Assembly (NCBI GenBank): GCA_015065965.1
Contig: SVPH01000007.1
Coordinates: 1 to 64,000 of the forward strand
DNA from: Oscillospiraceae bacterium
GTDB taxonomy: Bacteria; Bacillota; Clostridia; Oscillospirales; Acutalibacteraceae
DNA length: 64,000 nucleotides
Direction of reading: 5' to 3'
The notes beneath the pieces are model-generated. The model ran no database searches. It saw nothing but the letters and a program-made list of their open reading frames with translations, and was not told the DNA's origin. Each line of letters begins with the position of its first letter. The first letter of the stretch is position 1. The translations under genes were made by a program, and so were the position numbers. Positions 4,578 through 6,743 of this stretch are shown here, piece after piece.

Positions 4578-6743
4578 ATGACAGAAAAATTCAATATTGC
4601 GGGCTATGTCCGCATTTCGGTCGATGATGAACTTGACCGAGACAATGTTTCAATTGAAAACCAGAAGGCAATTATTGCCGATTATGTAAAAATCAATTTC
4701 CCCGGTAGCGATCTCACCTTTTTTGAAGAACGTGACCGCTCAGGTTACACTTTTGAACAGCGTGAAAGCTATCAGGAAATGCGGAAGGGTCTTTTATCCC
4801 ATAAATACGATATTCTTATCGTAAAAGACTTTTCAAGATTCTCGCGCCGTACCAGTCAGGGTCTTATGGAATTGGAAAATTTCCGTGACGAAGGTGTGCG
4901 TATTATTTCTATTGGCGACACCGTTGACTTTCCCAATAACAACGACTGGTTCAAAATTTCAATTCATTTTATTATGAACGAAATGCCCGTTACGGAAACT
5001 TCAAGAAAAGTCAAGAACGTTATAGAACGTCGCCAGAATGACGGTGAATGGATTTGTGCCGCGCCTTACGGCTATATCATCAATACCCATAAGAAATTTG
5101 AGATTGTTCCTACAGAAGCAGAGATCGTCAGAAAAATCTTTGACCTTTATATTAATGAAGGTATGGGTTATAACAGCATCGCAAATTATCTGACCGACAG
5201 CGGTGTTCCGACGCCGAGAATGTCAGAGCAGATGCGAAAGGAAGCCGAAGGTAAAGAGTATAAGCGGCAGGTCAAGGCTGTCTGGGCAATCGAAACGATT
5301 CACGGTATACTTCAGAACGATTTCTATATCGGCACTCTGAGACAAAGCAAATATACACGGGTAAAAATCAACGGCAAAAGCAAAAAACTTGATGACGGAA
5401 ACCATATTATCCATGAAGATCATCATCAGGCAATTATTGATTACCGTACTTTCGCTCTTGCCCGTGCGGCTATGGAAAGCCGTTCACGCAACAACTACCG
5501 CGGCGTAAAAATCAACGATAATATTTATTCAGGTCTCCTTAAATGCGGTGACTGCGGAAGTCCTATGTTTGCTACGGGCGGACAGTCAAGAAAATCTGCC
5601 TATACCTGTGGAACCTATCACAGAAGAGGACTCAAAGGTTGCACAAGTCATCATATCCGTGTGGACAAGCTTGATGAAGTCGTAAAGCTTTACGTTGAAA
5701 AAATCATGCAGAATTCTGCAGCTATGATTGATCAGCTCAATGCTGACCTTGAATGCGAAAATGAGAATATTGAAGAAACCGAGCAGACGGCAGAAAATAT
5801 CGCCAAGGTTCTTGTTGATCTGAACGAAGAACTTAAGGTAACAAAACGTATGCGCATCCGCGAAATCATGAAAAATCCTGACCGCGAGGCGGATATTGAA
5901 GATATGTACGACGAGCTTGAATCTGATTTGCAAAGAAAGATTGACGGTCTGAATCATCAGCTTGATATGCTCTCGGACAAACGCAACACAATTATAAGAG
6001 TTAACCGTGTTGCAAAAACTGCAATCGATATTTTCTCTGATATTCTCACAAAAGAAAAGCTCGAGCGTAATGATCTCGAGCTGATAATCGAAGCAATTTA
6101 TGTTTTTGAGGATCATATTGAAATAAAGCTTCAGCGCGATATTGATATGATTCTCAGATGCGGAACACTTCCCGAACCCTTGGAGGAAGCCGCAAATTTT
6201 AATTCAGGCACTGTAGATATCTTATCTGCTGAATTAGTCCAAGTGAGCAGAAATCACTCGGACAAGGTTTACAGTGTCAATGTTATCAGTAACGGCGACC
6301 CGTTGGAGATTTACACGGATGCGGACGGTGAGGTAATTTTTAAAAAATATTCGCCTATCGGAGAACTATCTTCGATTACGGGGCAGTATGCCGATGTGCT
6401 TGCGAGGGGTACGGGCCTTGCGGTTGTTGTTACCGACAGGGACAGTGTTATCGCATGCGCAGGCATATCAAAGAAAGAGATGCTTGACCGCAGAGTAAGC
6501 CGCAGCCTTGAGGGGCTTATGGAGCGCAGAGAAAACTATGTGTGCTGCGTGGACAGTGAGCGAATGAAGCCCATTGAAGGTGTTGACAAAGAGGCAGCGG
6601 TAGCGTTCCCGATTGTAGGCGGCGGAGATGTTTCGGGCGCAATTGTGATGCTGCTCAACGAAAACGGCTCATGCCCTACGCAGACGGAAACAAAACTTGC
6701 TCAGATTGCGGCAAACTTCCTCGGAAAACAGATGGAAGAATAA
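4578..6743 (+). CDS. Large serine recombinase fused in frame to the SpoVT C-terminal (GAF) portion
   Basis: Resolvase catalytic domain (GYVRISVDDELDRDNVSIENQ), recombinase domain, zinc ribbon (LKCGDCGSPMF...YTCGTYHRRGLKGC), coiled coil, then GDPLEIYTDADGEVIFKKYSPIGEL...IAANFLGKQMEE matching the SpoVT C-terminus. Confidence 0.9.
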   Translation: MTEKFNIAGYVRISVDDELDRDNVSIENQKAIIADYVKINFPGSDLTFFEERDRSGYTFEQRESYQEMRKGLLSHKYDILIVKDFSRFSRRTSQGLMELENFRDEGVRIISIGDTVDFPNNNDWFKISIHFIMNEMPVTETSRKVKNVIERRQNDGEWICAAPYGYIINTHKKFEIVPTEAEIVRKIFDLYINEGMGYNSIANYLTDSGVPTPRMSEQMRKEAEGKEYKRQVKAVWAIETIHGILQNDFYIGTLRQSKYTRVKINGKSKKLDDGNHIIHEDHHQAIIDYRTFALARAAMESRSRNNYRGVKINDNIYSGLLKCGDCGSPMFATGGQSRKSAYTCGTYHRRGLKGCTSHHIRVDKLDEVVKLYVEKIMQNSAAMIDQLNADLECENENIEETEQTAENIAKVLVDLNEELKVTKRMRIREIMKNPDREADIEDMYDELESDLQRKIDGLNHQLDMLSDKRNTIIRVNRVAKTAIDIFSDILTKEKLERNDLELIIEAIYVFEDHIEIKLQRDIDMILRCGTLPEPLEEAANFNSGTVDILSAELVQVSRNHSDKVYSVNVISNGDPLEIYTDADGEVIFKKYSPIGELSSITGQYADVLARGTGLAVVVTDRDSVIACAGISKKEMLDRRVSRSLEGLMERRENYVCCVDSERMKPIEGVDKEAAVAFPIVGGGDVSGAIVMLLNENGSCPTQTETKLAQIAANFLGKQMEE
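6294..6743 (+). pseudogene. spoVT: 3' part of spoVT (separated from its AbrB-like N-terminus by the element)
   Basis: GDPLEI(Y)(T)D.DGEVI.KKYSPI.EL pattern through FL.(R/K)QME; remaining length of ~149 aa fits loss of the first ~30 residues of a ~178-aa SpoVT. Confidence 0.85.

What the first reader, a model, noticed from the sequence alone, without database searches (positions are those of the whole stretch)
4578..6743. Mobilizable element integrated inside the sporulation regulator gene spoVT
Seen: the serine recombinase ORF continues without a stop into GDPLEIYTDADGEVIFKKYSPIGEL...FLGKQMEE. That reproduces the SpoVT C-terminus from roughly residue 31 onward, and the ~149 aa left fits a ~178-aa SpoVT lacking its first ~30 residues. 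Those residues are the AbrB-type DNA-binding swap-hairpin start. Established: elements with serine recombinases interrupt sporulation genes (skin/sigK, SPbeta/spsM, vfbin/spoVFB) and can be excised to restore the gene. Inference: this element, which carries a Mob/Pre relaxase rather than phage genes, is a comparable intervening element in spoVT, or simply inactivates it. The crossover should lie within about 6291-6306 (aacggcgacccgttgg).
Basis: partly seen in the sequence, partly recalled or inferred. Interest (0 to 1): 0.9.

Follow-up and report, generated by a model that had tools for sequence, protein, structure and literature searches.

The report
Mobile elements that split spoVT
A family of mobile DNA elements inserts at one exact spot in spoVT, a gene that other spore-forming bacteria need to finish a spore, cutting it into two matching halves that rejoin perfectly if the element leaves; it occurs in many gut Clostridia and, unlike the known elements of this type, it sits in a gene used by the future spore itself.

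Summary
ORF 4578-6743 is a large serine recombinase fused in frame to residues 32-179 of SpoVT. The genome has no intact spoVT. The missing 5' part (RBS, 31 codons, same core) is on another contig; joined at the core, the halves give a 179-aa SpoVT, 170/179 identical to an intact congener's. Of the 80 best recombinase relatives in 85,488 species genomes, all 79 whose contig continues are fused to SpoVT_C at the same codon, isolates included. Of 41 such genomes searched whole, none has intact spoVT; 36 keep the N-terminal fragment, 22 of them upstream on the same contig and strand. Reconstructed attP sites are palindromes centred on GA (window 6297-6298). attP lies inside the recombinase's 3' end, so integration swaps C-termini. 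A tail-ended free form was found (P0022); sister genomes and one species show empty and occupied sites. Split genomes keep sigma-G; genus members lacking spoVT mostly do not. Excision that restores SpoVT is the best reading; when it happens is unknown. spoVT is a forespore gene, whereas published intervening elements sit in mother-cell genes. New variant of a known kind.

The parts
4578..6743 (+). fused ORF: large serine recombinase (4578-6296) continuing in frame into the spoVT 3' part
6297..6743 (+). spoVT 3' part, codons 32-179 of 179
6294..6304 (+). core GGCGACCCGTT shared by attL (contig C49), attR and intact spoVT
6297..6298 (+). predicted crossover dinucleotide GA: dyad centre in 18/18 reconstructed attP sites; own attP 18/24 dyad matches
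6267..6326 (+). attR: attP left arm (recombinase 3' end) plus attB right arm (spoVT)
4487..4515 (+). sigma-A-like promoter TTGAAA-17-TACAAT upstream of the recombinase
4221..4469 (+). 82-aa ORF, no Pfam/NCBIfam/PHROG match; homologue within 3.5 kb upstream of the recombinase in 61 of 75 related loci: candidate directionality factor (inferred)
3222..4214 (+). MobV-type relaxase (Mob_Pre E 3.6e-52)
2653..3225 (+). DnaG-type CHC2 zinc-ribbon protein
1934..2320 (-). HIRAN-domain protein
954..1760 (-). XRE-type HTH regulator
232..957 (-). sigma-70-like protein (regions 2 and 4)
1..6293 (.). right-hand part of the element held in the window; its left part and attL are off the contig (attL candidate C49:6163-6339, minus strand)

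Best explanation
This is a mobilizable element that uses codons 31-34 of spoVT as its attachment site. A large serine recombinase joins the element's attP, which lies inside the 3' end of the recombinase's own gene, to attB in spoVT. SHOWN by sequence: integration exchanges C-termini, leaving SpoVT(1-33)+24-aa tail at the left end, mostly behind a sigma-G-like spoVT promoter, and recombinase+SpoVT(32-179) at the right end; rejoining the halves at the core gives an intact in-frame SpoVT; the family moves between hosts yet inserts at this codon. INFERRED: neither half alone should bind DNA as SpoVT, because the cut lies inside the N-terminal swapped-hairpin domain, so an occupied cell should lack SpoVT until the recombinase, with a directionality factor (candidate: ORF 4221-4469), excises the element. 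INFERRED, about 0.4: excision is timed to sporulation; otherwise occasional excision supplies the cells that sporulate.
For: No intact spoVT and an N fragment in the same genome. Joined window SpoVT 179 aa, 170/179 identical to intact G022. 79 of 79 readable relatives fused to SpoVT_C at the same codon. 41/41 such genomes without intact spoVT, 36 with the N fragment, 22 on one contig in the right order and strand, 6.8-80 kb apart. attP palindrome centred on GA in 18/18, 17.7/24 matches against at most 10.4 at other offsets. Free recombinase ending in the predicted tail: P0022. Empty/occupied pair G001/G015: 94-98% identical downstream flank starting at the core, joined protein identical at 178 of 179 residues. 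Intact and fused alleles within one species. Recombinase and host SpoVT_C distances nearly uncorrelated (rho 0.16), 33 recombinase-close host-far pairs. N halves pN/pS 0.078. Sigma-G-like promoter before 42/57 split N halves. Sigma-G gene in 9/9 split genus members tested, absent in 7/8 members lacking spoVT.
Against: No read-level or experimental evidence of excision or of its timing. No sporulation sigma promoter before the recombinase. In the window's genome the halves are on separate contigs and left-flank synteny could not be shown: the ortholog of a C49 gene lies away from spoVT in G022, and the C49 copy has no clear sigma-G-like promoter. Only 185 bp of upstream flank is well conserved in G001/G015. 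Excising from a forespore gene would remove the element from the spore genome. P0022 could be a tandem junction instead of a circle.
Confidence: 0.82

Rival explanations
1. Plain integration hot spot: the element disables SpoVT for good and occupied strains no longer make proper spores.
For: C. difficile and B. cereus spoVT mutants fail to complete spores (PMC3789822, PMC5061766); no sporulation promoter before the recombinase.
Against: 79/79 fused 3' halves that can be read remain open; N halves conserved, pN/pS 0.078; sigma-G kept in all split genus members tested. These fit recent insertions too, so the rival is weakened, not excluded.
Confidence: 0.25
2. The two chimeras are themselves the working products: the AbrB-half plus tail acts as a small regulator and recombinase-SpoVT_C as a GAF-regulated recombinase.
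For: Tail codons 7-20 show coding constraint (pN/pS 0.27-0.37) and tail-B copies with mutated cores keep the ORF; solitary copies carry promoter and terminator.
Against: Tail constraint is explained by its being the free recombinase's C-terminus (P0022). The cut removes half of the swapped-hairpin domain.
Confidence: 0.12
3. Assembly or binning artefact, or an old domain fusion with no mobile element.
For: The window's halves lie on different contigs.
Against: Same junction in 79 independent assemblies including isolates; both halves on one contig in 26 genomes; empty and occupied alleles; palindromic attP.
Confidence: 0.02

Closest known systems
gin element in gerE of B. cereus ATCC10987 (PMC5595907)
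   Same: non-phage element, serine recombinase, splits a small sporulation regulator gene at a short core with an inverted-repeat att site, precise rejoining
   Different: GerE acts in the mother cell and excision during sporulation is shown; gin has three recombinases and no reported recombinase-target fusion; here a relaxase, attP inside the recombinase ORF, order-wide spread and unproven excision
skin (sigK), SPbeta (spsM), vfbin (spoVFB), vrin (spoVR) (PMC4191935)
   Same: serine recombinase elements inside sporulation genes
   Different: phage-like and in mother-cell genes, so the spore keeps the element; spoVT is a forespore gene
yin element in yabG of C. botulinum (PMC10747680)
   Same: integrated and circular forms, sporulation gene
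   Different: prophage-like and reported in one isolate only
SCC elements (CcrABC) of staphylococci
   Same: serine recombinases; arrays of units at one target gene
   Different: Ccr family models score far below cut-off (108 of 900 bits for CcrC); SCC targets the 3' end of another gene (from memory)
integration-dependent immunity of mycobacteriophage BPs (PMC4557955, abstract)
   Same: the attachment site lies inside an element gene, so integration changes that gene's product (detail from memory)
   Different: there the gene is the repressor; here it is the recombinase, and its new end is a host protein domain

Membership tests
large serine recombinase integrative element | Resolvase + Recombinase + Zn-ribbon domains | tested here: met
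large serine recombinase integrative element | attP with inverted repeats around a central dinucleotide | tested here: met
   18/18 centred on GA
large serine recombinase integrative element | empty and occupied sites | tested here: met
sporulation gene-intervening element (skin/gin type) | element splits a sporulation gene that is rejoined in frame at the core | tested here: met
   by sequence reconstruction
sporulation gene-intervening element (skin/gin type) | excision during sporulation | not testable with these tools
   no reads or cultures
sporulation gene-intervening element (skin/gin type) | host gene expressed in the mother cell, so the spore keeps the element | tested here: not met
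   sigma-G-like promoter; SpoVT is a forespore protein in B. subtilis, B. cereus and C. difficile
integrative mobilizable element | relaxase in the element | tested here: met
   MobV in the window, other relaxase types in relatives
integrative mobilizable element | transfer between cells | tested here: inconclusive
   recombinase/host incongruence implies horizontal movement; no transfer assay
SCC cassette chromosome | CcrA/B/C recombinase at curated cut-off | tested here: not met
TndX-like multi-target serine transposase | DUF4368 domain | tested here: not met
   absent from the window recombinase

The most novel reading that the evidence does not exclude
A germline gene-intervening element: it excises in the forespore to switch SpoVT on, is carried in the spore as a circle and re-inserts at germination, and the exchange of the recombinase's C-terminus (own tail in the circle, SpoVT's ligand-binding domain when integrated) switches the enzyme between integration and excision.
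Probability: 0.15. Interest if true: 0.95.

Novelty: new variant of a known kind. Interest (0 to 1): 0.8.

Why it matters
SpoVT is required for heat-resistant spores in C. difficile, yet the gene is in two pieces in members of several families of gut Clostridia: 12 of 127 spoVT-bearing genomes sampled across the order and 10 of 16 in the window's genus. Either these bacteria rebuild a germline regulator by DNA excision when they sporulate, which would be the first such case known to us in a forespore gene, or a mobile element family is switching sporulation on and off across a major gut lineage. Cultured isolates exist, so the question is testable now.

Tried and rejected
A first search for the free recombinase with the G017 tail returned only fused forms; a more typical tail found P0022. 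Plasmid records held only relatives below 60% identity. No sporulation promoter was found before the recombinase. dN/dS for SpoVT_C over all moderately close pairs (median 0.45) was not used, because pairs with high pN but modest pS suggest saturation; the clearly close pairs give roughly 0.01-0.2. Left-flank synteny for contig C49 could not be shown. Whole-genome download was not available. Papers holding both spoVT and serine recombinase: none in the library.

Full report
The observation. ORF 4578-6743 encodes 721 aa with Resolvase, Recombinase and Zn-ribbon domains followed in frame by SpoVT_C (E 3.5e-37), and SpoVT from residue 30 on aligns to PDB 2w1t. The window starts at the first base of contig C44, so the left half is outside it. 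In the whole genome TIGR02851 finds this C-terminal part, one N-terminal fragment (residues 1-35) on contig C49, and a weak AbrB paralogue; there is no intact spoVT.

The two halves. The C49 fragment has an RBS, codons 1-31 and the core GGCGACCCGTT, then continues in frame into foreign residues and a stop. Joining both halves at the core gives 179 aa, 170/179 identical to intact SpoVT of congener G022, and the window's homology to G022 starts at 6293. Synteny does not prove that the C49 copy is the direct partner, but its arm completes an 18/24 palindrome with the window's arm.

It recurs. Ten genus members, the window's included, have a 602-750 aa open frame around spoVT's 3' part; six have intact spoVT. 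A scan of 85,488 species genomes with the recombinase alone gave 437 relatives; of the best 80, all 79 that can be read past the core are fused to SpoVT_C at the same codon, including Agathobaculum, Butyricicoccus, Flavonifractor, Pseudoflavonifractor and Oscillibacter isolates. Of 41 such genomes searched whole, none has intact spoVT, 36 hold the N fragment and 22 hold it upstream on the same contig and strand, 6.8-80 kb away; four genus members add to this. The N fragments that could be read past the core continue into a related tail, typically GDP-SQITLTxWEKFCFGMLDLAKRxGW. In an even sample of 150 genomes of the order, 127 have SpoVT_C and 12, in eight families, have an open frame above 700 aa.

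attP and the C-terminus exchange. Reconstructed attP sites are palindromes centred on GA in 18 of 18 cases. The frame runs through attP, so the circle should encode a recombinase ending in the tail. That protein exists: P0022, 596 aa, ends ...VISDGDPSQTTLAQWEKYCFYMMELSKRCGW and lacks SpoVT_C. The first six tail codons appear constrained as DNA and the next fourteen as protein.

Empty and occupied sites. G001 (intact) and G015 (split) share 94-98% identical DNA downstream starting at the core, and their SpoVT differs by one residue when G015's halves are joined. Proteins at the level of A. butyriciproducens include intact SpoVT and recombinase-fused SpoVT that are 96-100% identical to the query in the shared part. 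Recombinase and host distances are nearly uncorrelated and 33 pairs have close recombinases in distant hosts, so elements move and keep choosing this codon. Relaxases differ between elements (MobV, Mob_Pre, MobA/MobL, PF03432), and one related viral contig carries a phage tail-sheath gene.

Is the split gene alive? N halves show pN/pS 0.078 against 0.051 for intact genes, though some divergence may predate insertion. Sigma-G-like promoters precede 42 of 57 split and 10 of 17 intact genes, shuffled expectation 0.3 and 0.1. The sigma-G gene is present in 9/9 split genus members tested and 4/5 intact ones, but absent in 7/8 members without spoVT.

Mechanism. Shown by sequence: site-specific insertion, reciprocal C-terminus exchange, and reversibility in principle. 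Inferred: neither half works alone; excision needs a directionality factor, for which the 82-aa ORF 4221-4469, with homologues near the recombinase in 61 of 75 loci, is the best candidate. The recombinase has a sigma-A-like and no sporulation promoter, as for the constitutively expressed SPbeta and C. difficile skin recombinases (PMC5595907).

Against the known. The published intervening elements we found lie in mother-cell genes, and for SPbeta and skin excision is confined to the mother cell, so the spore keeps the element (PMC4191935). SpoVT is a forespore protein, needed for heat-resistant spores in C. difficile and for completing spores in B. cereus (PMC3789822, PMC5061766). Excision to restore it would act on the germline chromosome. 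That is the main novelty and the main unsolved point. No paper in the library holds both spoVT and serine recombinase.

Noticed in passing
L077 (G028 C40), L078, L067, L070, L093-L096, L083, L088: Extra copies of sigma-G-like promoter + SpoVT(1-33) + tail in genomes that also hold intact or fused spoVT, some spaced as units tail-cargo-[promoter+N] between cores (for example G034 C59 49951 to 43790). They look like cargo units that accrete at spoVT and bring a new promoter and 5' end (inferred).
   Followed up: partly
L067 (G023 C11:300397), L088 (G024 C9:6602), L083 (G022 C11:111627): Tail-B copies (SENYISAMLNLEKRLE) with mutated cores that still keep the chimeric ORF open.
   Followed up: partly
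L071 (G034 C59:49951), L077 (G028 C40:13013), L096 (G014 C242:2147): A shared non-spoVT left arm (CATATACTAATAAATTAACCATATYGATCC..GAAATT) joined to the same core and tail: possible secondary attachment site.
   Followed up: no
L063 (G000 C49) 897-4465: A second serine recombinase (591 aa, DUF4368) beside a MobA/MobL relaxase next to the N fragment: perhaps a nested element.
   Followed up: no
L220 (G096 C23:5415-5516): N fragment lies downstream of the fused C-terminal part, opposite to the order seen elsewhere.
   Followed up: no
L271: Viral contig with a phage tail-sheath gene beside a recombinase-SpoVT_C fusion: phages may use the same site.
   Followed up: partly
L264-L265 (G093 element): A 5361-aa ORF with YDG domains carried inside one spoVT element.
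   Followed up: no
P0132: SpoVT_C joined in frame to a different left partner (...FNVSPKGDPLEI).
   Followed up: no
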